In this document: piece by piece, positions 11,388-27,316 of the stretch
How positions within the stretch are numbered: position 1 is the first letter of the stretch
How the letters are laid out: the number at the start of each line of letters is the position of its first letter
Translations under genes and position numbers: made by a program
The notes under the pieces: generated by a model
The model's input: the letters and a program-made list of their open reading frames with translations, nothing else
Told to the model about the DNA's origin: nothing
Database searches by the model: none
From: Vibrio syngnathi
GTDB taxonomy: Bacteria; Pseudomonadota; Gammaproteobacteria; Enterobacterales; Vibrionaceae
NCBI RefSeq assembly: GCF_002119525.1
Contig: NZ_CP017916.1
Location: 682,001 to 746,000, forward strand
Length of the DNA stretch: 64,000 nucleotides
Direction of reading: 5' to 3'

Positions 11388-11392
11388 ACACT

Positions 11393-11545: not shown

Positions 11546-11549
11546 ATGA

Positions 11550-12080
11550 ATGATAAGTGAATCTCTGGTTTTTTGGGTGCTATTAATTGTTGTTTCAGTC
11601 TTCGATGTGAAAGAAAGTCGGATACCAAATAAAGCTCTGATTTTATTTGTATTACTGTACTTTATTTTATTGATTAATGGCGGAATTTCTTGGGATTCAC
11701 TTACGACTTCTTTAGTTGGTGCTGCAACCTTTTTCTTTTCAGGCCTTTTTTTATATTTTTTACGAGCAATGTCTGCTGGTGATGTAAAACTATTGGGTGT
11801 GATAGGCCTGTATGTCGGTTGGGGTAATTTGCTTGATATTTCTTATTATATTCTCATTGCCGCAGGGATAATAGCTACATTTTACTTGCTCTATAATAGT
11901 GCAAACAGTGAATCTCTGACCGTTAGAAACTATTTTGAAGAAAAACTAATGTTAGTTAGTGGAATGTCAACCAGAACAAAGAATGTGTCTACGGTTCATT
12001 ATCGGTATTCAAATAAGGTGACGATGCCTTTCGCACCTTCAGTTGTTATAGGCTTAGCGATGTATAGCTATTTTACGTAA
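11550..12080 (+). CDS. tadV: Tad prepilin peptidase (TadV/CpaA)
   Basis: 176 residues with several membrane segments. The two aspartates of the type IV prepilin peptidase family lie in DVKESRIPN (about residue 19) and in AMSAGDVKLLGVIGLYVG (about residue 75). The short length without the N-terminal methylase domain is normal for the Tad type. It cleaves Flp and pseudopilin leaders at the inner membrane. The start ATG at 11550 is four bases after the second flp stop, suggesting tight coupling. Confidence 0.9.
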   Translation: MISESLVFWVLLIVVSVFDVKESRIPNKALILFVLLYFILLINGGISWDSLTTSLVGAATFFFSGLFLYFLRAMSAGDVKLLGVIGLYVGWGNLLDISYYILIAAGIIATFYLLYNSANSESLTVRNYFEEKLMLVSGMSTRTKNVSTVHYRYSNKVTMPFAPSVVIGLAMYSYFT

Positions 12081-12119
12081 TTTAAATTGAATTATTATTC
12101 GATGTGTTGGAGAGAACAT

Positions 12120-13469
12120 ATGGATATTAGTGGGATACCATCCCCGAGTAATTTAAAGCCTCAAATATCAGCTCCTGTGGTTCCTACATCCATTGAAATG
12201 CTTGGTGTACCTGAGGTTGTGATTGAAAATTTATTACTCAAACACCTGTCCGCTTACCCTAAGTCAGATGTATTGGATCTATCTAACTATTTATGTGTGG
12301 TTACACATATTGTAGAAAATGGACTTGCGGTACTTAGACAAAAATCATTCATTGAAGTTTTTCAACCAACTTCAGCTTTAACGTTAGATTCATCTTCACA
12401 CAGCCATGTCCGTTACTCACTGTCTGAAAAAGGCATAGAAGAAGCGGATTTAGCTTTCACTCGAGATGCTTACTTAGGACCTGTTCCTGTATCTCTCTCT
12501 CAATATAGCAATATTGTGAATCAACAAGATTTACGCTCTGAATTGGTGACTCGACCGCATGTTGAAGCGGCTCTTAGTGACGTCTACGGAGTCGACAGAA
12601 TGATATCGGTGTTGGGACCTGCAATTAATTCAGGCAGAGCTCTACTTCTTTATGGGCATGCTGGTACAGGTAAAACGTTTGTAGCAACACGTATCGTCAA
12701 TGCTCTACACACTTCAGTGTTTATCCCTTATGCCGTTTACGCCTTCGGTAACATTATTAAAGTTTTTTCTACGCAACATCATAAACCGCTAGACAGCAAC
12801 GGTAGTGAAACATTGGTTTCTCTCAAGGATCAGTACGACAAGCGTTGGCTCAATTGTGAAAGACCCAATATTCAGGTGGGTGGAGAGTTGACCATGGATA
12901 TGCTCGAAGTTAATCATTCTGAGAACAGCCGAGTTTGGTTAGCGCCTTTACAAATGATGGCAAATAATGGGATTTTGGTTATTGATGACCTTGGGCGTCA
13001 ACCAATGCCAGTGGACAACCTCCTTAATCGTTGGATTGTACCTATGGAGCATTACTTCGATTACCTATCGTTACCGAATGGGCAGCAAGTTACGATGCCA
13101 TTTGTGCTCACACTCGCTTTCTCCACCAACTTAAACCCAGATAAGATCAGTGACCCTGCATTCTTGCGTCGGTTGGGTTATAAAATTGAATTTAAACCTC
13201 TTTGCCAACGAGACTATGAAGCTTTATGGATGAGTGTTGTTTCTGATAAAGGGGTAGAACTTCAAGATGGTTTCTTTGAGCGATTGTCTCAAATGCACAC
13301 GCTATACAAAGTGCCACTTTTCCCTTGCTTACCTAAAGATCTCGCAGGTATTAGCAAAGATATTCTTTCATTTGAACAACTCCCGCCAGTTATTACTTTT
13401 GATATTCTTTCCATGGCATGGGAAGTCTACTTTACCTCTGATGGACACGAGGAAGAAAATAATGAATAA
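12120..13469 (+). CDS. AAA ATPase of Tad loci, function unknown
   Basis: 449 residues from ATG 12120, chosen because TTGGAGAG lies just upstream; an in-frame ATG at 12087 has no such site. The first 150 residues look like a winged-helix domain (LLKHLSAYPKSDVLDLSNYL, then RYSLSEKGIEEADLAF), followed by YLGPVPVSLSQY. The AAA core has Walker A LLLYGHAGTGKTFVATRI and Walker B GILVIDDLGRQ, with a downstream SDPAFLRRLGYKIEF that fits an arginine finger region. Similar ATPases with a G-P-x-P-V linker are known near pilus genes, but to my knowledge none has a defined role. It overlaps rcpC by eight bases. Confidence 0.75.
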   Translation: MDISGIPSPSNLKPQISAPVVPTSIEMLGVPEVVIENLLLKHLSAYPKSDVLDLSNYLCVVTHIVENGLAVLRQKSFIEVFQPTSALTLDSSSHSHVRYSLSEKGIEEADLAFTRDAYLGPVPVSLSQYSNIVNQQDLRSELVTRPHVEAALSDVYGVDRMISVLGPAINSGRALLLYGHAGTGKTFVATRIVNALHTSVFIPYAVYAFGNIIKVFSTQHHKPLDSNGSETLVSLKDQYDKRWLNCERPNIQVGGELTMDMLEVNHSENSRVWLAPLQMMANNGILVIDDLGRQPMPVDNLLNRWIVPMEHYFDYLSLPNGQQVTMPFVLTLAFSTNLNPDKISDPAFLRRLGYKIEFKPLCQRDYEALWMSVVSDKGVELQDGFFERLSQMHTLYKVPLFPCLPKDLAGISKDILSFEQLPPVITFDILSMAWEVYFTSDGHEEENNE

Positions 13470-14211
13470 GAGTCAGGTATTCCTATTGTTTTTACTGTCC
13501 GTAGTATTCGGCTTAGCGGCTGTATTTTTTGCTAAGCAATGGATGGATAACCAAGTTCAACCGACGATCGAAGTTGAAGAGGTTGAACGTCACCCGGTTG
13601 TAGTCGCATCTCAAGAAATTGAAGCTGGAACCGTAATTGAAGATCAGTACTTAACGACGAAGCTGATGGAAGTGGATTGGATCAATGAAAATAATTACTC
13701 AGATCAAAACGAGCTAATTGGAAAAGTTGTCGCCAATACTATCTACGCAGGAGAGGTGCTTCATAAGTTGCGTTTTACCGTTCCTGGCGAAGGTTCAACA
13801 CTCGCTGCGTTGATTCCTGAAAATAAGCGAGCAGTAACTATTCGAGTCGATGATGTTATCGGTGTTGCTGGGTTTCTATTACCAGGAAACAAGGTCGATA
13901 TTCTTAATACCGTTTCCTATGGCAAAAACTCAGCGGCGACTCGAACCGTGTTGAAAGATATTAAAGTGTTAGCCGTAGACCAAACAGCAAGAACCAAAGA
14001 AAACAGCCCTATCATAGTTCGAGCGGTAACACTTGAGGTGACCCCTAAAGATGCAGAGAAGCTTCTTACGGCGAAGAGCAAAGGCAGTATTCAGCTCACC
14101 TTAAGAAACCCTCATGAGGTTGATAAAAAAGTCGTTCGTCGATACGTGCCTAGACCCAGTGTCACCATTATCAAGGGTACGGAAACATCCAGTGTGCGCG
14201 TCAAGGATTGA
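13462..14211 (+). CDS. rcpC: Tad pilus assembly protein RcpC/CpaB
   Basis: 249 residues from ATG 13462, which overlaps the end of the ATPase gene. One N-terminal membrane helix (QVFLLFLLSVVFGLAAVFF) is followed by a SAF domain (about residues 45-110: VVVASQEIEAGTVIEDQYL) and the RcpC-type region (AVTIRVDDVIGVAGFLLPGN, KVDILNTV). CpaB/RcpC proteins are periplasmic and work with the Tad secretin. A longer in-frame reading to 13267 lies inside the ATPase gene and is not credible. Confidence 0.9.
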   Translation: MNKSQVFLLFLLSVVFGLAAVFFAKQWMDNQVQPTIEVEEVERHPVVVASQEIEAGTVIEDQYLTTKLMEVDWINENNYSDQNELIGKVVANTIYAGEVLHKLRFTVPGEGSTLAALIPENKRAVTIRVDDVIGVAGFLLPGNKVDILNTVSYGKNSAATRTVLKDIKVLAVDQTARTKENSPIIVRAVTLEVTPKDAEKLLTAKSKGSIQLTLRNPHEVDKKVVRRYVPRPSVTIIKGTETSSVRVKD

Positions 14212-14219
14212 GGTGAGAT

Positions 14220-15677
14220 ATGAGAATTATATTAGCGTTATTTTTTAGCCTGATTTGTTTTTCGACCGCAAGTGTTGCTGCATTGCAAACGGGAAAAACA
14301 GTGACGGTTCCACACCATAAATCTACACATGTGGTGTTATCAGGCAAAGCGAGCAAGGTTTCACTTGGTGACCCTGATGTTTTGGATATCGTAATTTTAA
14401 AATCTAACGAAGTGTTTTTGATTGGTAAAAAGTTAGGAGCGACAAATCTGATGGCTTGGGATTCACGAGGACAGTTGATTGAGTCGATTAATATCGAGGT
14501 CACTCATGACTTAAATAGTTTGAAGTCCAAGCTGTATGAGTTTCTTCCTGATGAGACTATAGAGGTTCACAGCGCGCAGAATCGTTTGTTACTGAGTGGG
14601 CAAATTAGCAACCAACAGAAGATGAATGTTGCCATGCGAATTGCTGAAACTTACGCAGCAGGGCAAGCTGCAGACGACTCTAAAGAGAGCGGTAGTGAGC
14701 AAGTTGCTGCCACCGGAGTCATCAATTTAATGTCGATTGGTGGCGCTCAACAAGTCATGTTAGAAGTGACGGTCGCCGAGGTTCAGCGAAGCTTGGTGAG
14801 AAAGTTCGATGCCAATTTCCACTTCTTCCAGACCAGTGGCTCTAACTTTTCATGGGGTGCATCATCGGTTCCTGCTGGTGTATTAGGGGCTACGCCAATC
14901 TTTGATATTCCAACCTCTACTGATTACGGGATTTTAGGCTCGTTCATTGATAGTAATACCCTGTTTACATTCGCCCTGGATGTAGCAAAACAGAATGGTG
15001 TAGCGAAAGTATTAGCTGAACCTAACTTAACCGCATTAAGTGGATCTAAGGCTGAGTTTTTAGCGGGTGGTGAATTCCCTATCCCTGTGCCAGATGAAGA
15101 TGGTATTACGATTGAATATAAAGAGTATGGGGTCGGTCTGAAATTCATCCCAACGGTTCTGAGTGATAAAAAGATCAATCTAAACTTGGCTGTGGATGTG
15201 AGTGAAATTGCGAACAGCAGTTCATTGACTATCGACCCTGGTTCGACGAATGCGACGTATTTTATCCCTCCAATCACACGTCGAAGTGCCTCTTCTACGC
15301 TTGAACTTGCGGATGGTCAAACCATTGGTATTGCGGGGCTTCTGAGTGAAAACGTACGGGACGTCAGTAACAAAATGCCAGGTATTGGGGATGTGCCAAT
15401 TTTAGGTCAGCTCTTCAATAGTCAAGAGTATGTATCTGGCGAAACTGAGCTTGTCATTCTTGTTACGCCTAGGCTCGCTAAACCCGTAGACAGAAGCAAA
15501 GTCACACTGCCAACTGATGCCTTTGTTAACCCGAATGACCTGGAATATTACTTGTTAGGTAGAAGCGCTTATATTGCTGAGCCTTCTGATTCTGAAGACA
15601 ACAGTAATGTAAGTTCTTCTAAACCTATCACACCAACTGATGGTGGTAGTGAAGGTTCATTCGGTCATGATTTGTAA
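14220..15677 (+). CDS. rcpA: Tad outer membrane secretin RcpA/CpaC
   Basis: 485 residues with a signal peptide ending VAALQTG. The N-terminal pilus-secretin domain (about 25-100: VVLSGKASKVSLGDPDVLDI, VFLIGKKLGATNLMAWD) precedes a BON-like region. The C-terminal secretin core (about 175-430) includes VMLEVTVAEVQRSLVRKF, KVLAEPNLTALSGSKAEFL and ETELVILVTPRLAKPV. It forms the outer membrane channel through which the Flp pilus leaves. It starts eight bases after rcpC. Confidence 0.93.
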   Translation: MRIILALFFSLICFSTASVAALQTGKTVTVPHHKSTHVVLSGKASKVSLGDPDVLDIVILKSNEVFLIGKKLGATNLMAWDSRGQLIESINIEVTHDLNSLKSKLYEFLPDETIEVHSAQNRLLLSGQISNQQKMNVAMRIAETYAAGQAADDSKESGSEQVAATGVINLMSIGGAQQVMLEVTVAEVQRSLVRKFDANFHFFQTSGSNFSWGASSVPAGVLGATPIFDIPTSTDYGILGSFIDSNTLFTFALDVAKQNGVAKVLAEPNLTALSGSKAEFLAGGEFPIPVPDEDGITIEYKEYGVGLKFIPTVLSDKKINLNLAVDVSEIANSSSLTIDPGSTNATYFIPPITRRSASSTLELADGQTIGIAGLLSENVRDVSNKMPGIGDVPILGQLFNSQEYVSGETELVILVTPRLAKPVDRSKVTLPTDAFVNPNDLEYYLLGRSAYIAEPSDSEDNSNVSSSKPITPTDGGSEGSFGHDL

Positions 15678-15687
15678 GGAGATAGAT

Positions 15688-15936
15688 ATGATTAGAACAA
15701 TGATGGTCTTTCTCGCACTGGTATTAGTCGGTTGTGCGAATGACGCGCCTTTAGGGCAGTCGGTTGCTCAGTTGAAAGTGGAACAAACGTACAACCCGAA
15801 CGCTACTCAAGAGAACTTGGAAGTTTTACCTGATGGGACTGGTGAGCGTATGCAAGCTAGTTATGACAACTATGTGGGTAAAGGTGATGAGGATCTTTCC
15901 GGAAACAATAGCCAGGTTTTACAAAGCTTTAATTAG
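15688..15936 (+). CDS. Small lipoprotein of the Tad operon
   Basis: 82 residues. The signal sequence MIRTMMVFLALVLVGCAND has a lipobox (LVGC), so the mature protein is probably lipid-anchored. The rest is short and polar with no known domain. The start at 15688 has AAGGAGAT upstream; a longer reading from 15640 would overlap rcpA. Position after the secretin suggests a pilotin-like or RcpB-like role, but the sequence does not prove it. Confidence 0.65.
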   Translation: MIRTMMVFLALVLVGCANDAPLGQSVAQLKVEQTYNPNATQENLEVLPDGTGERMQASYDNYVGKGDEDLSGNNSQVLQSFN

Positions 15937-15950
15937 CGTGGAGGTACTTT

Positions 15951-17216
15951 ATGTCGTATCAAGTATCAAATAGTCCCAAGAAGCAGGGAGGTTTGGTGGT
16001 CATCTTTGTGACCATTGCGTTACTCGTATTCCTTGCGGTGTCTGCTTTGGCGGTGGACATCAACCATATGCTAGTGAATAAAACGCGCTTACAGAATGCG
16101 GTTGACTCCGCTGCATTGGCTGCAGCCACTATATTGGATAACAGCAAAGACCAGGCTGCGGTATCTGCAGAAGTTACATCAACATTGAATGCTATGGCGG
16201 GAGCTTCTGGTAATCATGAATTTAATTTTTCTACAGCAGTGGTAAGTGTTGAATACTCCAATGACCCTCAAAGTTTTGCGGGGACAACTACGTTTGGTGC
16301 TGATGATGATGTTTATGTTCGCGTTAATGTTAGTTCACTGGATATGGATGAATTTTTCATTCAGATGTTTGGTTTAGCTAAAGATGTATCGGCAACAGCG
16401 GTTGCTGGGCCAAGTTCTGGACTGCAAGTTGTCAACAACATTGTACCTATTGGAGTATGTATTGGTGATGGAACTTCAGATAATGACATCAATGAAGACG
16501 GCTATGATGATGCGACGGGTGAAGCAATTACCAATGTATTTGGCTATGAAGTAGGAACCGTTCATGCTCTAAAAGTGGGTGATAAAAAACTGTCACAAAT
16601 GGGGAATGGTAACTATCACTTGCTGGACTTTGGGTCTGGGGGAAAAACAGTAAAAGAGGCGTTGGCTGGTTATTACGACTACTCCGTAGCTATTGGCGAT
16701 AGTGTCACTACCAAGCCCGGGGGAACTGTCGGCCCCACTGCTGATGGGTTGAACACTCGCTTTGGTGATTATGGTGGTGGTTTATCAAGTTCAGCTTATC
16801 CTTCTGATTATGTCACTACCGAGCCTAACTCCCAAATTGAGATAGATAAAAAAACGGGCGACATTAATTTTGATGGCTCTTATACCTATGCTCAATATGA
16901 GTCAGACACAAACGCATGTATTACAAACAATGGTTCGGGTTGTGTTTCTGGTGGTACAGCATGGCGACGCATTCTTCCAATTCCGATGGTCGATTGTTCG
17001 GGTAAAAGTGGTGGAGTAACCAGTTTTACCGTGCAGAAAATAGGGTGTTTCTTCTTATTGCAAAAGGCACCAAGTAACAATTCAGGAACCCCAGCAGTAT
17101 TTGGTGAGTTTATACATTCTTGTAGTGTCGCTGGTGGCTCTGGTGGTTCTGAATCATCAACTGAAGGTCCATACAAAATTGTTTTGTATAAAGACCCTGA
17201 TGGGGGAGGCTCTTAG
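15951..17216 (+). CDS. TadG-like envelope protein (second copy)
   Basis: 421 residues. The N-terminal TadE/G-like segment is GGLVVIFVTIALLVFLAVSA, followed by LAVDINHMLVNKTRLQNAVD and SAALAAATIL. The remaining periplasmic part is Gly/Ser/Asp-rich with cysteines and shows no von Willebrand-type motif, unlike the TadG-like protein near 7 kb. A calcium-binding-like acidic stretch (DNDINEDGYDDATG, about residue 181) is visible. Start has GTGGAGGTAC upstream. It is probably a minor pilus-assembly protein of the main operon. Confidence 0.8.
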   Translation: MSYQVSNSPKKQGGLVVIFVTIALLVFLAVSALAVDINHMLVNKTRLQNAVDSAALAAATILDNSKDQAAVSAEVTSTLNAMAGASGNHEFNFSTAVVSVEYSNDPQSFAGTTTFGADDDVYVRVNVSSLDMDEFFIQMFGLAKDVSATAVAGPSSGLQVVNNIVPIGVCIGDGTSDNDINEDGYDDATGEAITNVFGYEVGTVHALKVGDKKLSQMGNGNYHLLDFGSGGKTVKEALAGYYDYSVAIGDSVTTKPGGTVGPTADGLNTRFGDYGGGLSSSAYPSDYVTTEPNSQIEIDKKTGDINFDGSYTYAQYESDTNACITNNGSGCVSGGTAWRRILPIPMVDCSGKSGGVTSFTVQKIGCFFLLQKAPSNNSGTPAVFGEFIHSCSVAGGSGGSESSTEGPYKIVLYKDPDGGGS

Positions 17217-17218
17217 TT

Positions 17219-17647
17219 ATGAATAGGAAATTAAACAAGCAGCAAGGTCTCGCCGCTATTGAAATGATGATTGCAACACCAGTCTTATTGTTTTTCTTAG
17301 TGTTGGTTCTTGAGTTGGGAAACATTCTAATTCATTACAATGTGATATCTAAATCGGTTCAAAATGGGGCTCGATACGCAGTTAGCGAAGTGTATGGAAC
17401 ACAAGGTGGAACATTGGCGCCGACTGCGGAAATTCAAAACATCGTGGTTTACGGGAAAAACACGGTAGGTACAGCCATACTTTCTAGTCTTGCAACTTCT
17501 GATGTGGTTGTTACTCCTCCCACTGCAGACAGTTATGTGAGAATAACGGTTAATTATGAGTATGTCCCTCATTTCTTATCTGTCCCATTTTCATCTGAAA
17601 GTTTATCAATTCCCTTGAGTGTGTCGTCCGTGATGAGGGTTTTTTGA
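17219..17647 (+). CDS. TadE-like pseudopilin (second copy)
   Basis: 142 residues. The pseudopilin motif is QQGLAAIEMMIATPVLLFFL at about residues 8-27, then SVQNGARYAVSE, the usual TadE pattern. It starts two bases after the previous stop with GGGGGAGG upstream, and its end overlaps the next gene by four bases. A minor pseudopilin processed by TadV is the likely role. Confidence 0.85.
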   Translation: MNRKLNKQQGLAAIEMMIATPVLLFFLVLVLELGNILIHYNVISKSVQNGARYAVSEVYGTQGGTLAPTAEIQNIVVYGKNTVGTAILSSLATSDVVVTPPTADSYVRITVNYEYVPHFLSVPFSSESLSIPLSVSSVMRVF

Positions 17648-18147
17648 TGGAGTCAATCAAGAAACATAGCGGCTTAGCCATCATCGAATTTACGATTGTT
17701 TCTTGGTTGGTGTTTTTGCTGATTTTTCTGATTCTAGCTTTAGGGGCTTACGTATTTTCATTGCAGATTGTTAATGAGGCGACCAGAAAAGCAGCTAGGT
17801 TAGCGACCGTTTGTTACGTGCTAGATCGCGATAACATTGCGGGGGTTGTCGTAGAAGACATACCACTACTAGGCTTTAGTGATAGTAATTTGGAGGTCGC
17901 GTATTTAGATGCTTCTGGCGTTGAAATTACTTCTGATTTCGAAGCGAACCTGAGTGCGATCAAGTTTGTTAGAGCAAGAGCTACAGGTTATGGCATTCAA
18001 CTGATCAGTAACCTAAGCTTTTTAGGGGCCAATGGTTTTCTTACTGCCCCAGCGTTTGAGACAATTTTACCAGCTGAGAATTTGGGTGTGATAAAGGCTG
18101 AAACAAATACTAGGACAAGGTGTCCGGAACCAGTACAGGGTGGGTAG
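17644..18147 (+). CDS. tadF: TadE/TadF-like pseudopilin (second copy)
   Basis: 167 residues. The motif is HSGLAIIEFTIVSWLVFLLI followed by a long hydrophobic helix and QIVNEATRKAARLATVCYV, as in TadF-type proteins. It overlaps the preceding gene through ATGG/TGA (four bases), pointing to translational coupling. Two cysteines are present, one near each end of the mature region. Confidence 0.82.
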   Translation: MMESIKKHSGLAIIEFTIVSWLVFLLIFLILALGAYVFSLQIVNEATRKAARLATVCYVLDRDNIAGVVVEDIPLLGFSDSNLEVAYLDASGVEITSDFEANLSAIKFVRARATGYGIQLISNLSFLGANGFLTAPAFETILPAENLGVIKAETNTRTRCPEPVQGG

Positions 18148-18148
18148 T

Positions 18149-19363
18149 ATGGGCGAAGCAATTGATATTTTACCAAGTGAAGACGATGCGATTCGCCTTA
18201 AAACCAACTTGAATGTATGGCTTATCTATAGCAACGAAAAATTTCATGCACATATGAGACAGCAATTAAAACGCTGTCGAAATGTTCATATTGACTCTTT
18301 TTCTTTGCTAGGTATGACTGAAGAGTATGTGAAAAATATAGATGCTCCCGATCTTATTTTTGTTGAAGCAAGTGGTGGTTGGGCTCAGAAAATGGTGGAT
18401 CTTCAAAGCTACAACCTACAGTTAGAAGAGCATGATTTATCTTTAGTTGTGTTTGGTGATGAGAGTGATAACGGCTCATTGAAAATAGCGCTAAGACTTG
18501 GTGCTTCTGATTTTCTATCTCATGACATTTCAATTTCAGGCCTTTTACCGCTTCTTAAGAAAACTGCAGCGGAGAAAATCGAAAACTCGAGCTACGGAGA
18601 AGTGTTTTTATTTATCAATACTAAAGGTGGTATGGGGGCGACCACCTTAGCGCTCAATACAGCCGTAGAAATAGCAAGTTATCACCCGAGTGAGGTGCTG
18701 TTGCTTGATATTGATCTCCAGTTTGGTGTTATTCCAGAATATTTGAATATCACACCGTCCTACAGTATTTCGGATGCCATCGACAGTTCTAATGATTTGG
18801 ATGAAATGTCTTTAGGAAGTTTAGTGAACAAGCATACATCTGGGTTGCATGTTTTAAGTTTCAAACATGAAAATAATGCGGATGATTATGAGCATGCCCA
18901 GAAAATTGGAAAGTTATTACCTGTACTACGCCGTTTCTATCGCTACATTATCATTGATTTCTCTCGAGGTTTGGATCATATCTTTGCTTCAGCTATTTCC
19001 CCTGCGACCAAGGTGCTACTTGTTGCTCAGCAAACCTTAGTGTCTGTTAAAAACAGTAACCGTTTAGTAAGAACGTTGAAGTTTGAGTACGGATTACAAC
19101 AAGATGCAATAGAAATCATAGTGAATCGTTATGAGAAGCGACAAACCATTAAGTTATCTGATATAGAACAGACCGTTGGAAAGCATGATATCCATTTAAT
19201 GCCTAACGATTTTAAAGTGGCGCTAGAGAGTGCCAATTTAGGTCAGCCTTTGGTTGAGTCAAAAAAGAAGAGTTCGATTACACGGTCGATCATCGATTTA
19301 TCTCATATCCTTTCTCCTCCGGAACAAGAAGAGAAGAGCTGGCTCAAAAAGATATTTTCATAG
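18149..19363 (+). CDS. tadZ: TadZ/CpaE-like polar localisation ATPase
   Basis: 404 residues from ATG 18149, one base after the previous stop, with CAGGGTGGG upstream. An atypical receiver-like domain fills about residues 25-135 (NVWLIYSNEKFHAHMRQQL). A MinD/ParA-type ATPase follows: VFLFINTKGGMGATTLALNT near residue 150, VLLLDIDLQFGVIPEYL and YRYIIIDFSRGLD. The Walker A lysine at the second position is replaced by Ala (GGMGATT), as in other TadZ proteins. TadZ places the pilus machine in the cell. Confidence 0.9.
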   Translation: MGEAIDILPSEDDAIRLKTNLNVWLIYSNEKFHAHMRQQLKRCRNVHIDSFSLLGMTEEYVKNIDAPDLIFVEASGGWAQKMVDLQSYNLQLEEHDLSLVVFGDESDNGSLKIALRLGASDFLSHDISISGLLPLLKKTAAEKIENSSYGEVFLFINTKGGMGATTLALNTAVEIASYHPSEVLLLDIDLQFGVIPEYLNITPSYSISDAIDSSNDLDEMSLGSLVNKHTSGLHVLSFKHENNADDYEHAQKIGKLLPVLRRFYRYIIIDFSRGLDHIFASAISPATKVLLVAQQTLVSVKNSNRLVRTLKFEYGLQQDAIEIIVNRYEKRQTIKLSDIEQTVGKHDIHLMPNDFKVALESANLGQPLVESKKKSSITRSIIDLSHILSPPEQEEKSWLKKIFS

Positions 19364-19398
19364 ATTGTTTGTTCTAAGCATATAGATGAGGGATCGTT

Positions 19399-20850
19399 AT
19401 GTTCTTTAAACGAAAAAATATTAATCCGGAGTTTGAAAAGAAAGTAGAACAGTTTTCCGAACAGGAAGACGGTGTTGTATCGCCCCTCATTCAGAAAGTA
19501 GCTAACGTTTCTCATGAAACTAAGAGTTTAGAGGCGAGTGAAGAACAAGAGAAGTCGGTGAATGAGGCGAAAAAAGTCTTAGAGCAAGAACTGTCGATTA
19601 AACACTACTTTCATAAACAGCTACTTGAAACATTAGATTTAGGTCTACTTTCTAGTTTGGATAAAGAGCGTGCCAAAGTAGACCTTCATGAAGCGATCGT
19701 TCAGTTAATGGCGGATGACCAAAGCCACGCATTAAGTGCTGAGGGGCGTAAGCGAGTCATCAAGCAAATTGAAGATGAAGTATTTGGCCTGGGCCCACTT
19801 GAACCATTATTAGCCGATAAAACGGTGTCCGATATTTTGGTCAACGGACCTAAAAGTGTTTATGTCGAACGCCGAGGCAAATTAGAAAAAACACCGTATA
19901 CGTTTTTAGATGATCGTCACTTAAGAAACATTATTGATCGTATTGTCAGTCAGGTTGGACGCCGGATTGATGAAGCGTCGCCGATGGTGGATGCTCGATT
20001 AGTTGATGGTTCACGAGTGAATGCCATTATTCCCCCTTTGGCCTTAGATGGCCCTTCCGTTTCTATACGACGTTTTTCTGTAGACAGTCTAACCATGGAT
20101 AATCTGCTGGAATATAAGTCAGCCTCCCCACAAATGGCAAAATTCATTGAAGCTGCCGTAAAAGGTGAGCTTAATATCCTTATTTCTGGTGGTACAGGTT
20201 CAGGGAAAACGACGACGTTGAATATTTTTTCTGGTTTCATTCCGCGAGACCAACGAATTATTACCATAGAAGACTCAGCCGAATTACAACTTCAACAACC
20301 TCATGTTATTCGCTTAGAAACCCGCCCTGCGAACCTAGAGGGCAAGGGAGAAATCAGTCAGCGCGAATTGGTTAAAAATACCTTGCGTATGCGACCAGAC
20401 CGAATCGTGGTTGGGGAGGTGCGTGGTAGCGAAGCCGTTGACATGCTAGCGGCGATGAATACCGGTCATGATGGTTCTCTTGCGACTATTCACGCCAATA
20501 CCCCCCGAGATGCCCTAAGCCGTGTTGAAAACATGTTCTCTATGGCTGGTTGGAACATTTCAACCAAAAACTTAAGAGCCCAAATTGCTTCGGCTATCCA
20601 CCTTGTTGTCCAAATGGAACGACAAGAAGATGGTAAGCGCCGTATGGTCAGTATTCAAGAGATCAACGGTATGGAAGGAGAGGTGATCACCATGTCTGAG
20701 ATCTTCCACTTTCAGCGTCAAGGTGTCGATGAGCATGGCAATATTTTAGGTTATTACACAGCAACCGGTGTGGTGCCTCAGTCTCATGACCAATTGGTGA
20801 AGCGTGGTCTTGATTTGCCGTTTGAGCTCTTTACCGAATCACATAGCTGA
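19399..20850 (+). CDS. tadA: Tad pilus motor ATPase TadA/CpaF
   Basis: 483 residues. A charged N-terminal region of about 110 residues is followed by the CpaF-type core: Walker [21 protein letters not shown], Asp box [20 protein letters not shown], Walker [21 protein letters not shown] and His box [14 protein letters not shown]. It is the secretion-family ATPase that powers both extension and retraction of Tad pili. Length is normal. Confidence 0.95.
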
Positions 20851-20860
20851 GGAGCGGATT

Positions 20861-21826
20861 ATGGATAGCGTAACAGTTTCATTGGTTCTATTGTTTGTTG
20901 CGGTGTTGTTTATTTCACAAGCCTTATTATTGCCAGCTGCCGGAAAAAAAGCTAAGCACAAAGAGTTGACTCGTCGCTTAAAAGAGACACAAAGAAATAT
21001 TGATGAAGAGAGTTTGTCGCTCTTAAAAGATCACTACAACAAAGAACTATCACCACTTGACCGGAAGTTGATTGTCATTCCTTTCTTTGCAGACCTAAAA
21101 CGCATGCTGGAATTAGCGGGGCTGAAGCTCACTTTAAGTCGCTTTTTATTGATTGTGTTTTTGTGCGCCACTTTGTTGGCTTTGGTTGCTTTAGTCTCAA
21201 ATCAAGTGTGGTTCATTTGTGTCGCGGCTTTCGTCTTTGCTTGGGTTATTGCTTACTTGTTTGTCCAAAACAGAGTGACATACAGAATGGCGCGATTCGA
21301 AGAACAGTTGCCGGAAGCTTTGGATATTATCAGGAGAGCTTTACAAGCAGGTCAGCCATTGGTCCAGGCTTTCAATGAGGTGGGGGAAGAGATGCCTGAG
21401 CCTATTGGTGTTGAGTTTAAGAACACCTACAACTTGCTGAACTACGGTTACGATTTGAGGCTCGCTATTATGCAAATGACAGAAAGAGCACCCACGGTTT
21501 CGATGTTGGCTTTTTCTAGTGCTGTCATGCTGCAGAAAGAGACAGGGGGGAATCTCTCAGAGAATCTGCAAAAAGTATCTGTGGTACTGAGAGCGCGCTT
21601 TAAACTAGAAAGAAAAATCAAAACCCTCTCTGCTGAGAGTCGCCTTTCTGCCTGGATACTAACCCTTTCTCCGTTTGCTCTGTTTTTCGGTCTTAAATTC
21701 GTAAACCCTGAATACATAGCACCTTTGTACACCGACCCTAGAGGAATATCGATGGTCAGTGTTGGGGTTATCTTGTTGGCTATTGGGGCATTGTGGATAA
21801 GAAAAATAATAAATATCGAGATATAG
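20861..21826 (+). CDS. tadB: Tad inner membrane platform protein TadB
   Basis: 321 residues from ATG 20861, with TGAGGAGCGG upstream; the open frame extends back into tadA but that start is not credible. It shows the GspF/TadB domain: RMARFEEQLPEALDIIRRAL, QAGQPLVQAFNEVGEEMPEP, and ETGGNLSENLQKVSVVLRAR, with membrane helices at the N-terminus, mid-protein and C-terminus. A run of six G bases lies at the Gly-Gly codons (21545-21550). Confidence 0.93.
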   Translation: MDSVTVSLVLLFVAVLFISQALLLPAAGKKAKHKELTRRLKETQRNIDEESLSLLKDHYNKELSPLDRKLIVIPFFADLKRMLELAGLKLTLSRFLLIVFLCATLLALVALVSNQVWFICVAAFVFAWVIAYLFVQNRVTYRMARFEEQLPEALDIIRRALQAGQPLVQAFNEVGEEMPEPIGVEFKNTYNLLNYGYDLRLAIMQMTERAPTVSMLAFSSAVMLQKETGGNLSENLQKVSVVLRARFKLERKIKTLSAESRLSAWILTLSPFALFFGLKFVNPEYIAPLYTDPRGISMVSVGVILLAIGALWIRKIINIEI

Positions 21827-21829
21827 ATT

Positions 21830-22801
21830 ATGGAATTCTTTAATTTAGATGTATGGAAGCAAGCACTCTCTGAGTTTGGAATCAGTAGCCAAGCCGTACT
21901 TTACGGGATGATCTTGCTGACCACTATGTTACTGACCCTTACTCTTGGTTTTCTTTTTGTAGGCACTCGCTCCCCGTTGGATAAAAAGCTCAAGCAGATA
22001 TCCAGTGGTAGTCATACGAGTAGTAGAAAACCTTACGATTTTACCAATACGTTAGAATCGTTAACGCCATTTATTGGACGAGGGAATAAAAAAGACAACG
22101 AAACTTACTCAGAAAAACTCATGCATGCCGGATACCATGAAAAGAGTGCGCTTTCTGTCTTTTACGCTTTCAAAGTACTGTCAGCCCTTATCGGATTTGT
22201 TTGTGCATTTATGGTGTTTTATTTAGCGATAGGTGGCAGTTACAACAACTTATTGATTGTGACTTGTATCTTTGTCGGTACGTTTTTACCCAATTTTATA
22301 TTGAGTAAAATGCAAAAAGAGAGACAGAGAAAGATCAGGAATGGTGTGCCAGATGCTCTTGACCTGCTGGTGGTCTGTACAGAGTCCGGTCTTGGTTTTA
22401 ATGCTGCGCTAGGGCGAGTTGCTAACGAACTATATATTTCACAGCCAGAGTTAGCCGATGAATTGGAGACTGTTTTTGCCAAGATACAAGCAGGTGTCAC
22501 CATGCCAGATGCTTTGAGTCAGCTCGTTGAACGAACAGGACTTCATGAATTAGATGGGCTCATATCTTTACTTTCTCATGCCTCAAGAATGGGGGGGAGC
22601 TTGGCGCAAACCTTACGAGACTATACCGAAGATTTTCGAGATAAGCGGCAACAAGCTGCGGAAGAAATTGCAGCAAAGATACCCACTAAGATGTTATTTC
22701 CTATGTTGTTATTTATTTGGCCTTGTTTTTTTATTGTTGCCCTAGGACCTGGGATGATGATTGTTATGGACGCATTGAGTGCGCCAGGAGTCGGTTTATG
22801 A
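21830..22801 (+). CDS. tadC: Tad inner membrane platform protein TadC
   Basis: 323 residues with the second GspF-type domain: RNGVPDALDLLVVCTESGLG, FNAALGRVANEL, and RMGGSLAQTLRDYTEDFRDK. Membrane helices are present near both ends. It starts three bases after tadB and ends overlapping tadD. A run of seven G bases (22591-22597) sits at the Met-Gly-Gly codons. TadB and TadC together form the platform on which TadA acts. Confidence 0.93.
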   Translation: MEFFNLDVWKQALSEFGISSQAVLYGMILLTTMLLTLTLGFLFVGTRSPLDKKLKQISSGSHTSSRKPYDFTNTLESLTPFIGRGNKKDNETYSEKLMHAGYHEKSALSVFYAFKVLSALIGFVCAFMVFYLAIGGSYNNLLIVTCIFVGTFLPNFILSKMQKERQRKIRNGVPDALDLLVVCTESGLGFNAALGRVANELYISQPELADELETVFAKIQAGVTMPDALSQLVERTGLHELDGLISLLSHASRMGGSLAQTLRDYTEDFRDKRQQAAEEIAAKIPTKMLFPMLLFIWPCFFIVALGPGMMIVMDALSAPGVGL

Positions 22802-23802
22802 TGCTAATGAATAGAATGGTTTTACTTTTACTGCCGCTATTAATTTTAGGGTGTGCCTCTTCTGATGAACCAACTAATCAGTTTGATGCCGAGTTGTATT
22901 CGGGGAAGCCAATTGACACCTTAACCAGTGACGATCCCCCTATCAGTGAAAAAGAAGCCATTATGCGTGGTGATGTGGCTTTGAGGGACAACAATATCGA
23001 TTTGGCACTTTACGAATATATTCGCTCTCTGTCTTTTCCTGAGCAAGAGTTTCACGATAAAACGTTGTTTACTATCGGCCGAATTCATTCATCGAGAGGC
23101 AACTATGCACTGGCTGAAAAAGCGTATCTGGCGGCATTAGATTTTAACCCAGCGCATACGGAAGTGCTAGAGCAGTTAGGCGTGTTATATACCAAACAGC
23201 GTCGTACGGATGAGGGAAGAAGCTATTTCTTTAAAGCGATTAATGCAGATCAAGTGCGTTTAAAAAGTAGTGAAACGATTACAAATTACCAAGCCTTAAG
23301 TCAAAGTGAAGTAGCCGCTTTGAAGGTTGACAGTATGTCTCCTGCATCAGCCTTTATGGGTATTGGCGTGCTGGAAGATGTCGATGGAAAACATCAAATT
23401 GCACAAGAATACTTTAAAAAATCGCTGACTATCGATAAGACATCAGTGAAAGCTCTACTGAATATGGGGTATTCCCATTACATGTACGGTAACTACAAAG
23501 AAGCGTATCAATATACTCGTTCGGCTTTAGAGATAGAACCGAACAATGAAAAGGCTCAAAACAACCTTGCGCTCATTTATTTGGCATCAGGTGATGTGAA
23601 AAAAGCGATAAATGTGTTTATGCGTCATATGGATGCACCTGAAGCTCTGAACAATGTAGGGTATTTTTTAATTATTCAAGGTCGACCAGATGAAGCCGTT
23701 CCTTACCTTCAACAAGCTATTGATAAGAAACCCTCTTATTACAAAATCGCCAATGAAAATCTGAATAGAGCGCTATCAGAGGTAAGAGAGATGAAGCAAT
23801 AA
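22798..23802 (+). CDS. tadD: TadD-like TPR lipoprotein
   Basis: 334 residues from ATG 22798, overlapping the tadC stop; nearby in-frame ATGs (22801, 22807) are possible. The signal sequence ends in a lipobox (LILGCASS). TPR repeats fill the rest, for example NYALAEKAYLAALDFNPAHT, AQEYFKKSLTIDKTSVKALL, AYQYTRSALEIEPNNEKAQN and AVPYLQQAIDKKPSYYK. TadD is an outer membrane lipoprotein that helps assembly of the Tad secretin. It ends the canonical Tad set. Confidence 0.9.
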   Translation: MMLMNRMVLLLLPLLILGCASSDEPTNQFDAELYSGKPIDTLTSDDPPISEKEAIMRGDVALRDNNIDLALYEYIRSLSFPEQEFHDKTLFTIGRIHSSRGNYALAEKAYLAALDFNPAHTEVLEQLGVLYTKQRRTDEGRSYFFKAINADQVRLKSSETITNYQALSQSEVAALKVDSMSPASAFMGIGVLEDVDGKHQIAQEYFKKSLTIDKTSVKALLNMGYSHYMYGNYKEAYQYTRSALEIEPNNEKAQNNLALIYLASGDVKKAINVFMRHMDAPEALNNVGYFLIIQGRPDEAVPYLQQAIDKKPSYYKIANENLNRALSEVREMKQ

Positions 23803-23826
23803 CTACTTAGCGCCAGTTTTAGTGCA

Positions 23827-25608
23827 ATGAAAAGGATCTTTATATTGCCTAACCGTGAAAGTTTTAATAAAGATGTCATTGTAATCTCTATTTTTTGGTT
23901 TGCCTGCGCATCAGTGATACTGTTTTACAAGTGGGAAGCAGTATCCGCACTCAATCTAAATGATAACGATGATTATATGCGTTATGTTCAGTTCCAAGCG
24001 TGGATGAAAAGTGGTCATTGGTACTTAGAACCGATGAGTAATTTCAATGCTCTCGATGGCATTATTATTCATTGGTCTCGGTTTCCTGATCTAATGTTAT
24101 CTATAGTCGCTTTCCCATTGCTATTTATAATTGATGATAGTCTTGCTTATTCAATCTCGATTTCTGTTGTGCCATTGTTTTACTTGTTACTTTACGCATT
24201 ATCATGTTTCTATTTATGTGACCAATACTTTGGGAGAAAATATCGCTTCATAAGTATGATGTTTGCTATTTCCTCTCCTTCAATTATTCATTTCCTGCCA
24301 GGTTCTATTGATCACCATAATATTCAACTTATATTAGCAGCACTGTTTCTTTCAGTTACACCTCTTACTACTCGTAGTCTCAATCAATCATGGCGTGTTT
24401 ATATACAATCCACTTTCCTATCTTTATCTTTGTGGACGGGTGTGGATAATCTATTGTTGTTCTTTCCGTTCTTTTTTCTTTATACGGTCTATTTCGGTTT
24501 TTTTAATAACGGATACTTTAGTTATATCTCCAAGCTATACGCTACTTGTACGGTTTTGTCATCTATTACTGTTTTATTGAATAGGCCTTACGATGAGTTT
24601 TTTGTTTTAAAATATGATGAAGTATCATTTATTATTATAATATTATTCTTTAGTGGTTGGTTGTTTGTTCATTTTTATCACAGATTGGCGAGTAATGATA
24701 AGAGTGTAATTGAAAGGACTTTCCTGTTTATTACTCTTGGTTTGTTGTGTTTACTTCCTGTTTTTATTGTTTACCCATCACTTACTAGTGCTTTATTAAT
24801 TGATTACCCTCCAATACTTAAGATGTATTGGCTTGATCAAGTGACGGAAGCTAAATCTGTTGCTAATTATATATCAACCCATGGTTTATTTTCTGTTGAA
24901 AACTATGCGTTGCTATTGGTTCCCGCAATTCTATCCCCGATATTTAAGTTAAAAAACCACCATGCAATAATATTGTACATCATCTTTATGTTTAATTTAT
25001 TTCTTGCGCTATTTTGGCAGATTAGACTAATGAGGTTGTGCTTTGTTTTAGCTGCACCTTTTCAAGCATACTTTATTATGAAATTGTCCGATATTGTTAG
25101 ATATTCAGTTCTAAAAATTATTGTTATCTTCTCTGGTGCTCCTTTAGCTTTAGCACTTTTTATTGTTGTTTTGTCACCAGAAGAAAAAGTAACCACTGTT
25201 TTTGATAATATAGAAAACCCACCAGATATATTTAAAGTATTAAAAGATAACGGTATTAATTCACATACAATTCTTTCTGGGATAGAAACCGGCGCTCCTG
25301 TACTAGCAAAAACCAACAACAGTATCATTGCAGCGCCTTACCATCGAAATATTGCTGGCAACCAATTCCTAATTGAAGTGATGCTAGAAGAGGACATGCT
25401 CTTAGCAAGAAAAGAAATAATAGACAAAAGGGTTGATTATATATTGATTGGTAATGACCCTCATTTATCTCTTCTGGAGGCGTCGGGAAGCGATAATTCT
25501 CTAGTTAAAAGGCTTCATGGGGATAATGTTCCAGATTGGCTAGAGGTGACATACGACGGAGTTAAGGATGGTTACCGAGTTTTTAAAGTGAGGGGTGAGA
25601 ATGAATAA
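23827..25608 (+). CDS. STT3/AglB-like GT-C membrane glycosyltransferase
   Basis: 593 residues with about a dozen membrane segments and a soluble C-terminal part (from about 460). In the first outer loop is LNDNDDYMRY (D46, D48, D49), followed by DGIIIHWSRFPD (77-88). A second outer loop has LPGSIDHHNIQ (D162, H163, H164). These resemble the DxD and DHH motifs of AglB/STT3 oligosaccharyltransferases. The C-terminal domain has GIETGAPVLAKTNNSI and AAPYHRN in place of a WWDYG motif. The assignment to GT-C fold is good; transfer of sugar to a protein is inference. The gene is AT-rich and lies 24 bases after tadD. Confidence 0.6.
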   Translation: MKRIFILPNRESFNKDVIVISIFWFACASVILFYKWEAVSALNLNDNDDYMRYVQFQAWMKSGHWYLEPMSNFNALDGIIIHWSRFPDLMLSIVAFPLLFIIDDSLAYSISISVVPLFYLLLYALSCFYLCDQYFGRKYRFISMMFAISSPSIIHFLPGSIDHHNIQLILAALFLSVTPLTTRSLNQSWRVYIQSTFLSLSLWTGVDNLLLFFPFFFLYTVYFGFFNNGYFSYISKLYATCTVLSSITVLLNRPYDEFFVLKYDEVSFIIIILFFSGWLFVHFYHRLASNDKSVIERTFLFITLGLLCLLPVFIVYPSLTSALLIDYPPILKMYWLDQVTEAKSVANYISTHGLFSVENYALLLVPAILSPIFKLKNHHAIILYIIFMFNLFLALFWQIRLMRLCFVLAAPFQAYFIMKLSDIVRYSVLKIIVIFSGAPLALALFIVVLSPEEKVTTVFDNIENPPDIFKVLKDNGINSHTILSGIETGAPVLAKTNNSIIAAPYHRNIAGNQFLIEVMLEEDMLLARKEIIDKRVDYILIGNDPHLSLLEASGSDNSLVKRLHGDNVPDWLEVTYDGVKDGYRVFKVRGENE

Positions 25609-26530
25609 GCAGAAATTAGCAGTATTACTCCCATGTTTTAATGAAGCGGGTGCTATCGGAAAGACAGTTATGTCTTTTAAGCAGGCTTTACCTGATGCGT
25701 CTATTTATGTGTATGACAACAACTCAACCGACAACACGGTAAACGAGGCATTGCAAGCTGGGGCTATTGTTCGACATGAGCCTCGCCAAGGTAAAGGGGA
25801 GGTTGTCAGGCGAATGTTCTCTGATATTGATGCTGATATCTATGTGATGGCTGATGGTGATGACACTTACGATGCGTCAATATGCCCTGCGCTGATCGAA
25901 CAATTGGATAATGAAAAACTCGATATGATTATTGGAAGTCGAGAGCGAGCTTCAATGGCTTATCCCAAAGGGCATATCCTAGGAAATAAGCTGTTTTCAT
26001 CGCTGATTAATTTAGCATTCAATGCTCAATTGAGTGATGTGTTTTCTGGTTATCGAATTATGAGCCATCGATTTGTCAAAACCGTACCCATTTTCAGTGA
26101 TGGCTTCCAAATAGAAACAGAGCTTACCGTTCATGCGCTACATCATAATATGCCAATCAAAGAAGTTTCGACGCAATATCAATCAAGGCCTGAAGGCACA
26201 GCCAGCAAATTGAATACCTTTAGTGATGGGCTCAAAATTCTCAATTTCATTTTGTTCTTATTGAGAGATGTAAAGCCAATGTTTTTCTTTGGCGTGTTGT
26301 CTATGTTGCTTTGCTTCATTTCATTGGTTTTAGGAATCCCCGTTATCATCGACTTCATCGATACTGGGCTCGTCGAAAGGGTGCCTACTGCGATTTTGTC
26401 TAGTTCAATTGCATTGATAGCGGTGATGTCTTTTTTCTGTGGGTTGATACTCGACAACGTATCACGAGGTAGGCGAGAGATGAGGATCCTTTCTATATTA
26501 CGAACGAGTGATAAAACGCTATCTGAATAG
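25601..26530 (+). CDS. GT2 glycosyltransferase, polyprenyl-phosphate type
   Basis: 309 residues from ATG 25601, which overlaps the previous gene by eight bases and follows GAGGGGTGAG. The GT-A fold begins LAVLLPCFNEAGAIGKTVMS, with YVYDNNSTDNTV and the DxD-type motif VMADGDDTYD (about residue 86). Two membrane helices lie near the C-terminus (about 228-290). This is the layout of GtrB/dolichyl-phosphate sugar synthase-like enzymes, which load a sugar onto a lipid carrier. It could feed the neighbouring GT-C enzyme. Confidence 0.8.
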   Translation: MNKQKLAVLLPCFNEAGAIGKTVMSFKQALPDASIYVYDNNSTDNTVNEALQAGAIVRHEPRQGKGEVVRRMFSDIDADIYVMADGDDTYDASICPALIEQLDNEKLDMIIGSRERASMAYPKGHILGNKLFSSLINLAFNAQLSDVFSGYRIMSHRFVKTVPIFSDGFQIETELTVHALHHNMPIKEVSTQYQSRPEGTASKLNTFSDGLKILNFILFLLRDVKPMFFFGVLSMLLCFISLVLGIPVIIDFIDTGLVERVPTAILSSSIALIAVMSFFCGLILDNVSRGRREMRILSILRTSDKTLSE

Positions 26531-26539
26531 GAATCAAGC

Positions 26540-27259
26540 ATGCGAACAAGCAAGGATGAAGACAAAGAGTGGATCGATTATTTGTCCCGTTTCAGTGACG
26601 AATATGATGAGCGAGTTTATAACGGAAATACAACGGGTTATGTGATGAGAGCTGGTCATATAGCATGTGAAAAGCCATTTGGTGAAAGTGAACACTTTTC
26701 GAGAGTGTTAGAAGTGGGCTCAGGAACGGGCGAACACTTATTGCATGTTAAGCACACCTTCGACGAATACATTGTTAGTGATGGCGATGCATCAGCACTC
26801 GAAGTAGCAGATAAGCAACTCAGTCGTATAAATTCTTATGACAAACTCACTTTTAACGTAACTAATGCTTGTGAGTTAGATTTTGAAAGCAATAGTTTCG
26901 ATCGCGTGATCGCAACTCATATATTGGAGCACTTATACGAGCCTCACTTGGTGATCAAAGAGTGGTTGCGAGTGTTAAAACCTGGAGGCACTCTGTCTAT
27001 TTTGATTCCTACCGATCCTGGGATCGCTTGGAAAATCGGCCGTTATATGACGACAAGAAAACACGCCTTACAGAAGGGGTGGCATTACGATTACATTATG
27101 GCGAGAGAGCATGTCAATCCATGCAATAACTTAATCGCTTTCTTAAGGTATTACCTTCCTGAACACCAAAAATCATTTTGGCCGCTGAGCTTTGTGCCGC
27201 TTATTGATTGCAATTTGTTCTTCAACTTTCATGGTATTAAACCGCTATCGGGAAATTAA
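26540..27259 (+). CDS. Class I SAM-dependent methyltransferase
   Basis: 239 residues. SAM-binding motif I is RVLEVGSGTGEHLLHV (about residue 56), an acidic residue follows at the second strand (IVSDGDAS), and motif III-like regions are FDRVIATHILEHLYEP and LRVLKPGGTLSILIPT. It fits the Methyltransf_11 group, often found in sugar and lipid gene clusters. It starts nine bases after the GT2 gene, so it may modify the same sugar. The substrate is unknown. Last gene of the Tad-linked operon before a terminator. Confidence 0.8.
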   Translation: MRTSKDEDKEWIDYLSRFSDEYDERVYNGNTTGYVMRAGHIACEKPFGESEHFSRVLEVGSGTGEHLLHVKHTFDEYIVSDGDASALEVADKQLSRINSYDKLTFNVTNACELDFESNSFDRVIATHILEHLYEPHLVIKEWLRVLKPGGTLSILIPTDPGIAWKIGRYMTTRKHALQKGWHYDYIMAREHVNPCNNLIAFLRYYLPEHQKSFWPLSFVPLIDCNLFFNFHGIKPLSGN

Positions 27260-27281
27260 AGGTGCCTCTGTTTTTAAAAGT

Positions 27282-27316
27282 AAGAAGTAAGTGATCAAAC
27301 CACTCACTTCTTATTC
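27282..27316. terminator. Hairpin between converging genes
   Basis: AAGAAGTAAGTG pairs with CACTCACTTCTT (one mismatch) across a short loop, just after the methyltransferase gene and before the end of the chromate transporter gene. It probably ends both transcripts. Confidence 0.65.

What the first reader, a model, noticed from the sequence alone, without database searches (positions are those of the whole stretch)
22798..27259. Tad pilus operon extended by an STT3/AglB-like enzyme, a GT2 glycosyltransferase and a methyltransferase
Seen: three genes follow tadD on the same strand with gaps or overlaps under 25 bases, and the next hairpin comes only after the third. The first has an acidic DNDD loop, a DGxxxHWSR segment and a DHH motif that resemble archaeal AglB/STT3. 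The second looks like a lipid-carrier sugar synthase. Flp pilins of some species are reported to be modified. Inference: a dedicated Tad pilin glycosylation pathway, with the sugar methylated.
Basis: partly seen in the sequence, partly recalled or inferred. Interest (0 to 1): 0.85.

Follow-up and report, generated by a model that had tools for sequence, protein, structure and literature searches.

The report
Pilus operon with AglB-like sugar transferase
Behind the genes for a surface pilus, this Vibrio carries genes for a membrane enzyme shaped like the archaeal enzyme that attaches sugars to proteins, a likely maker of its sugar donor and a methyl-adding enzyme; this could mean a new type of bacterial protein glycosylation, but what the enzyme modifies is not yet known.

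The parts
22798..23802 (+). tadD (TPR lipoprotein), last core tad gene
   Evidence: TPR families; 86-97% identical in L019-L023 and in four GTC-negative relatives
23827..25608 (+). 593-aa OST-like GT-C protein, here called GTC: EL1 D46-N-D48, H82-W-S-R85, EL2 D162-H-H164, EL5 V339-T-E341, R400, C-terminal domain with I486-E487-T-G489 in place of WWDYG
25601..26530 (+). GT2 glycosyltransferase with two C-terminal hydrophobic segments, polyprenyl-phosphate-sugar synthase type
   Evidence: PF00535 59.3 bits; NCBIfam AglJ 200.3 bits, cut-off 325; PDB DPM synthase 5mlz E 3.1e-7; segments 232-250 and 265-283
26540..27259 (+). class I SAM-dependent methyltransferase, accessory
   Evidence: PF08241 69.7 bits; in 4 of 148 genomes searched
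27279..27315 (+). hairpin between the methyltransferase and the convergent chrA-like gene
   Evidence: -14.1 kcal/mol, z -2.0; no T-run; not listed by the terminator scan
11199..22801 (+). tad locus upstream: two Flp-like pilins (11199-11387, 11393-11545), tadV, an AAA+ ATPase (12087-13469), rcpC, rcpA, a small lipoprotein (called rcpB here), tadG/E/F-like genes, tadZ, tadA, tadB, tadC
   Evidence: ORFs; Pfam on tadV, tadC, TadG-like, AAA; the other names by sequence and order, partly recalled

Best explanation
GT2 loads a sugar from a nucleotide donor onto a polyprenyl monophosphate at the inner face of the membrane, as AglJ or DPM synthase does. The lipid-linked sugar is flipped by a protein not encoded here. 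GTC, an AglB-like single-subunit transferase, binds a divalent metal with D48, D162 and H164 and the lipid phosphate with H82 and R400, and passes the sugar, with E341 in its mobile loop, to a periplasmic protein acceptor. WWDYG, which reads Ser/Thr at +2 of N-X-S/T, is changed (mostly to xx[IVM][DE]xG in the Vibrio-centred set), so the acceptor is chosen in another way. Where the genes sit in the tad operon, the likely acceptor is a Tad pilin, pseudopilin or secretin component, and the methyltransferase decorates the sugar. Shown here: fold of the model, motif residues, gene pairing, location. Inferred: enzyme activity, residue roles (by position against AglB), monophosphate donor, small sugar, protein acceptor, Tad acceptor, role of the methyltransferase.
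Against: 3 of 16 Vibrio copies lie between epd- and tkt-like genes, and 38 of 40 non-Vibrio stretches show no tad gene within about 9 kb. No acceptor signature: Flp of the seven in-operon genomes has no N-X-S/T, and Ser/Thr tails of GTC-negative Flp overlap widely with theirs; no sequon of seven other Tad proteins is general in GTC-positive and absent from GTC-negative genomes (the nearest, one in RcpA, is in 3 of 7 against 0 of 5). The window's tad genes are closer to GTC-negative genomes (tadA 92-99% in G005, G027, G087, G011) than to GTC carriers (tadA 87-90% in L019-L024), so Tad works without GTC. Sequence profiles alone are weak: PF02516 hits 0 of 47 and 1 of 41 members, below cut-off; hhalign to PglB-type OSTs gives probability 4.7 and 38. 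In the broad set (A4) 6 of 41 rows depart at one or more of the motif residues, among them G220's tad-linked copy (Thr for D162) and two with Gln for E341.
Confidence: 0.5

Rival explanations
1. GTC and GT2 are a general or non-Tad protein glycosylation pair for periplasmic or surface proteins; its place in tad loci reflects co-regulation or exchange of surface-structure genes rather than a Tad acceptor.
For: Pair found at an epd-tkt-like site in 3 Vibrio genomes and family members away from tad in 38 of 40 other stretches; no Tad protein shows an acceptor signature; the cassette has its own exchange history (GT2 dS 0.11 between G000 and G076 while the ten tad genes compared exceed 1.3 or are saturated).
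Against: 7 of 16 in the operon and 5 more within about 3 kb of tad in several different arrangements; in 148 genomes all 16 carriers have tad.
Confidence: 0.25
2. GTC is a GT-C transferase for a non-protein acceptor (LPS core, lipid A, exopolysaccharide), in the manner of ArnT or RgtA, fed by GT2.
Confidence: 0.2
3. A classical N-linked OST acting on N-X-S/T sequons of Tad proteins.
For: Fold and catalytic residues as in AglB/PglB; conserved sequons exist in RcpA and TadG.
Against: No row of A1 (47) or A4 (41) has WW in that region; the conserved sequons are as common in GTC-negative relatives and Flp of the in-operon set has none.
Confidence: 0.05

Closest known systems
AglB / AglJ pathway (archaeal N-glycosylation)
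   Same: AglB fold over the full length, first-DXD Asp, DHH, phosphate-site His and Arg, EL5 Glu; partner GT2 closest to AglJ among NCBIfam models; a donor on a single phosphate would fit. Haloferax also has a glycan methyltransferase, AglP (recalled).
   Different: No WWDYG; about 590 aa; bacterial; PF02516 and AglJ cut-offs not reached; acceptor unknown.
PglB (Campylobacter-type bacterial N-OST)
   Different: PglB uses a pyrophosphate-linked oligosaccharide (recalled) and WWDYG-read sequons; hhalign does not link the families with confidence.
DPY19 C-mannosyltransferase
   Different: Eukaryotic; acts on Trp of WxxW/C; AglB matches the window protein better.
ArnT / RgtA / PMT GT-C transferases
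   Same: Polyprenyl-phosphate-sugar donor and GT2 partner (ArnC, RgtE, DPM; recalled).
Pilin glycosylation by PglL/TfpO/TfpW; modified Flp1 of Aggregatibacter
   Same: A transferase near pilus genes that decorates pilins (recalled); Flp1 is described as glycosylated (PMC6182317, passage) and RcpC as implicated (PMC12307814, passage).
   Different: PglL/TfpO/TfpW are not AglB-like (recalled); no STT3-like enzyme in Tad loci appeared in the listings of our literature searches.

Membership tests
STT3/AglB/PglB oligosaccharyltransferase | OST fold: GT-C membrane domain plus C-terminal globular domain | tested here: met
STT3/AglB/PglB oligosaccharyltransferase | First DXD motif (EL1), metal-binding Asp | tested here: met
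   D46-N-D48; D48 in 46 of 47 A1 rows and 40 of 41 A4 rows, the other row a gap in a truncated protein
STT3/AglB/PglB oligosaccharyltransferase | Second DXD motif (EL2); Asp-His-His in AfAglB | tested here: met
   D162-H-H164 in 47 of 47 A1 rows; D 39, H 39, H 40 of 41 in A4; AfAglB motif from PMC8342417
STT3/AglB/PglB oligosaccharyltransferase | TIXE/SVSE Glu in EL5 | tested here: met
   V339-T-E341; E in 47 of 47 (A1) and 39 of 41 (A4, the others Gln); aligned to SVSE of mammalian STT3A. The Thr of TIXE is not kept.
STT3/AglB/PglB oligosaccharyltransferase | WWDYG motif | tested here: not met
   HMM alignments put it on xxIDxG-like residues; in A1 D or E at 487 in 45 of 47 and G489 in 44 of 47; no WW there in any of 47 A1 or 41 A4 rows
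STT3/AglB/PglB oligosaccharyltransferase | PF02516 above its cut-off | tested here: not met
   0 of 47; 1 of 41 at 19.3 bits vs 24.5
STT3/AglB/PglB oligosaccharyltransferase | DK/MI motif | not tested
   no reliable residue-level alignment of that region was made
STT3/AglB/PglB oligosaccharyltransferase | Transfer of lipid-linked glycan to Asn of N-X-S/T | not testable with these tools
   needs biochemistry
AglJ (TIGR04182) | NCBIfam equivalog cut-off 325 bits | tested here: not met
   200.3 bits, the best NCBIfam match of the window's GT2; 131.7 bits for G044's GT2
GT2 polyprenyl-phosphate sugar synthases | GT2 domain plus C-terminal membrane helices | tested here: met
   PF00535 59.3 bits vs 23.3; hydrophobic segments 232-250, 265-283; DPM synthase E 3.1e-7
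ArnT/PMT lipid-A or O-mannosyl transferases | closest fold and family match | tested here: inconclusive
   fold match present but below OSTs; no PMT family among the Pfam hits

The most novel reading that the evidence does not exclude
The window protein belongs to an undescribed branch of the STT3/AglB superfamily that kept AglB's metal and phosphate-site residues but dropped the sequon reader. It works as a two-gene, polyprenyl-monophosphate pathway (AglJ-like synthase plus AglB-like transferase) that adds a single, species-specific and sometimes methylated sugar to the Tad pilus at non-sequon sites. The branch is widespread in other proteobacteria (named hits are mostly alphaproteobacterial) under names such as AcrB/AcrD/AcrF or GtrA family.
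Probability: 0.4. Interest if true: 0.82.

Novelty: new variant of a known kind. Interest (0 to 1): 0.63.

Why it matters
Tad (Flp) pili are common adhesins whose modification has been reported but whose enzymes are unclear; here is a concrete candidate with close relatives that lack it.

Tried and rejected
Direct Pfam, NCBIfam (E up to 0.01) and PDB sequence (E up to 1) searches with the single protein found nothing for GTC. Profile-profile comparison with seven PglB-type OSTs gave only probability 4.7 (A1) and 38 (A4), so sequence alone does not prove membership; the control against two ArnT-like sequences gave 1.8. In the A4 profile search of PDB sequences AglB and STT3A lead (E 0.0012 to 0.012), but a potassium channel follows at 0.013, so those E-values are modest; with A1 the two AglB hits were at 0.098 and 0.19.

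Acceptor signatures were sought and not found. Flp in 15 of the 16 GTC-positive genomes (G004's Flp was outside the stretch held) and 19 of the 43 marker-bearing genomes without GTC: sequons occur in 2 of 15 and 2 of 19, and Ser/Thr tails overlap widely by eye; no statistical test was made (the pattern also picked up some small ORFs that are not pilins, which I left out). RcpC, RcpA, RcpB and TadD in 7 in-operon against 5 GTC-negative genomes, TadG/E/F against 4 (G027 has none): one RcpA sequon is in 3 of 7 against 0 of 5, the rest do not follow GTC.

PglB-like N-glycosylation on sequons was rejected as main reading for lack of WWDYG and of sequons in Flp. The trio as a conserved unit was rejected: the methyltransferase is in 4 of 16. 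GTC-tad linkage as a family-wide rule was rejected (2 of 40 stretches outside Vibrio). Tree: a first tree lost eight Vibrio rows through a strand slip of mine and was replaced; there the 16 Vibrio copies are one clade (SH-aLRT 100) and the tad/away label changes 4 times on 49 rows (4 without L152; 3 without L152 and either L153 or L154). L153 and L154, the two non-Vibrio tad-linked rows, are long branches and their place is unsure. The tree is a quick search; G018's row is a 397-aa piece.

dN/dS is simple Nei-Gojobori with most synonymous distances saturated.
Full report
What is there. The window lies in a genome that I take for the Vibrio splendidus group: the closest GTC protein in the database, 98% identical, is from Vibrio sp. 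MED222. A tad locus runs from two small Flp-like pilins (11199) to tadD (23802). Behind tadD, on the same strand, come a 593-aa membrane protein (GTC), a GT2 glycosyltransferase and a class I methyltransferase, with junctions of +24, -8 and +9 bases. A hairpin (27279-27315) stands before a convergent chrA-like gene; the consensus scan lists no terminator between the genes.

Active site. A paper on AfAglB (PMC8342417, passages read) gives Asp47 (first DXD, Gly-Asn-Asp), Asp161 and His163 (second DXD, Asp-His-His) as metal ligands, Glu360 of TIXE near them, and His81 and Arg426 close to the phosphate; it also speaks of a single phosphate in the AfAglB donor. GTC has D48 (in D-N-D), D162-H163-H164, E341 (V-T-E), H82 (H-W-S-R) and R400. 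The distances D48-H82 (34) and D48-D162 (114) equal those of AfAglB (47-81, 47-161). H82, D162, H163, H164, E341 and R400 do not vary in 47 A1 rows; in 41 broader rows (A4) each is kept in 39 to 41, and 6 of 41 rows depart at one or more of them. The HMM alignment of A4 with mammalian STT3A is collinear over 89-546 and puts DHH on DNE, V-x-E on SVSE, R on R, and IDxG-like residues on WWDYG. The WW pair, which with DK/MI forms the Ser/Thr pocket of the sequon (same paper), is missing in all 47 and 41 rows. Hence: OST-like catalysis, other acceptor reading. Membership by PF02516 is not met (0 of 47; 1 of 41 at 19.3 of 24.5 bits).

The partner. GT2 has PF00535, two C-terminal hydrophobic segments, and AglJ (TIGR04182) as best NCBIfam model at 200.3 bits, below its cut-off of 325. 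Among 148 genomes GTC occurs in 16 and this GT2 (E<=1e-30) in 14, all of them GTC carriers. In the other two (G039, G044) the neighbour is a second GT2 type; for G044 its best NCBIfam model is again AglJ (131.7 bits), and the G039 gene is its homologue. In all 15 neighbour stretches and in the window a GT2 lies next to GTC. Only the window's and G044's GT2 of the 16 were scanned with NCBIfam. Outside Vibrio 8 of 40 stretches have a GT2 of either type within about 1.4 kb of GTC; in the other 32 none was found. A donor synthase that can be exchanged while the transferase stays is what a sugar-donor/transferase pair would show.

The tad link. Of 16 Vibrio copies, 7 are in the operon behind tadD, 5 lie within about 3 kb of a tad gene in other arrangements (upstream of flp with one or two genes between, divergent from flp, or convergent behind tadD), one is about 12 kb behind tadD (G004), and 3 (G066, G073, G083) lie between genes that look like epd and tkt. 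All 16 genomes have the tad-locus AAA gene used as marker, against 59 of 148 (hypergeometric 1e-7 over all 148, about 1e-4 to 3e-4 if the genus holds 94 or 89 of them, which I could only bound; relatedness is not corrected for). In all six GTC-negative genomes looked at (G005, G027, G087, G011, G009, G045) tadD is followed directly by chrA: the empty site. The window's tad genes are closest to some of these GTC-negative genomes (tadA 92-99% in G005, G027, G087, G011, against 87-90% in the six other in-operon carriers), so the cassette was gained here or lost there. In a tree of 49 rows the Vibrio copies form one clade and the tad/away label changes four times. In the phylum sample 54 of 398 genomes have a family member at E<=1e-10, 50 of them outside the genus. 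I looked at 40 stretches from 37 of those 50 genomes; only G154 and G220 have tad genes within about 9 kb. G220, from another family of the same class, has methyltransferase, GT2, GT87 and GTC in front of its rcpC-rcpA-tadZ-tadA genes, which looks like an independent assembly of the same parts list; its GTC is very divergent and has Thr for D162.

Accessories. The methyltransferase occurs in 4 of 148 genomes (E<=1e-40), each time behind GT2 in the operon. In four other Vibrio loci (G066, G073, G080, G004) a sulfatase-superfamily membrane protein lies near the pair, in two of them with a GDPD-like protein, and in G080 also with a GtrA protein. Different small additions to a glycan would explain this, but no substrate is known.

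Evolution. Against G046 and G006 GTC has omega 0.14 and GT2 0.05, while the tad genes with usable values are 0.03-0.06; most synonymous distances are saturated. Between the window and G076, GT2 has dS 0.11 and the methyltransferase 0.50, while GTC (60% identity) is saturated and the ten tad genes compared exceed 1.3 or are saturated. The GT2-methyltransferase part has moved between lineages recently; GTC changes fast.

Acceptor. Flp of the seven in-operon genomes has no N-X-S/T; Ser/Thr tails of GTC-negative Flp overlap widely with theirs. No sequon of seven other Tad proteins follows GTC; one RcpA sequon is in 3 of 7 carriers and 0 of 5 others. G087 has a first Flp that differs at 7 of 62 positions and keeps the same STTTAP tail, and no GTC. 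So the acceptor stays open: Flp Ser/Thr, a pseudopilin, the secretin, or something outside Tad.

Literature. Flp1 of Aggregatibacter is described as glycosylated (PMC6182317, passage) and RcpC as implicated in Flp glycosylation (PMC12307814, passage). The listings of searches showed no paper that, by title or start of abstract, ties an STT3/AglB-like enzyme to Tad pili or names this family; two searches showed 12 of 293 and 12 of 22 papers, and the library holds open-licence PMC papers only, so this is no proof of absence. Of PMC13234629 I saw passages.

Verdict. Fold and donor pairing: about 0.9. Protein acceptor: about 0.8 (sum of the odds given). Tad acceptor in the in-operon clade: about 0.5. 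New variant of a known kind.

Noticed in passing
window 12087-13469: A 460-aa AAA+ ATPase sits between tadV and rcpC, apart from tadZ and tadA; it is found in 59 of 148 relatives and is not, as far as I recall, a standard tad gene.
   Followed up: partly
window 11393-11545: A second, 50-aa Flp-like pilin follows flp1; a number of the other Vibrio tad loci also carry two.
   Followed up: no
L181 (G027): This relative's tad locus has no recognisable tadG/E/F: only about 200 bases lie between the rcpB-like gene and tadZ.
   Followed up: no
L004 / L021 (G018): The GTC gene of this in-operon relative is interrupted by an in-frame TAG (longest open piece 397 aa), so it may be inactive there.
   Followed up: no
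window 25601-27259 vs L023 (G076): GT2 (dS 0.11) and methyltransferase (dS 0.50) are far more alike than the flanking genes, a sign of recent exchange of this part alone.
   Followed up: partly
L025, L027, L029, L031: Sulfatase-superfamily membrane protein near the GTC-GT2 pair in four Vibrio genomes, with a GDPD-like protein in two of them: possible phosphoglycerol-type decoration.
   Followed up: partly
L154 (G220): tad locus of another family of the same class with methyltransferase, GT2, GT87 and a very divergent GTC.
   Followed up: partly
P0112, P0115, P0120, P0312, P0331, P0351; P0241, P0288, P0311, P0319, P0326, P0338: Family members are named AcrB/AcrD/AcrF family or GtrA family in public records, probably wrong names.
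   Followed up: partly
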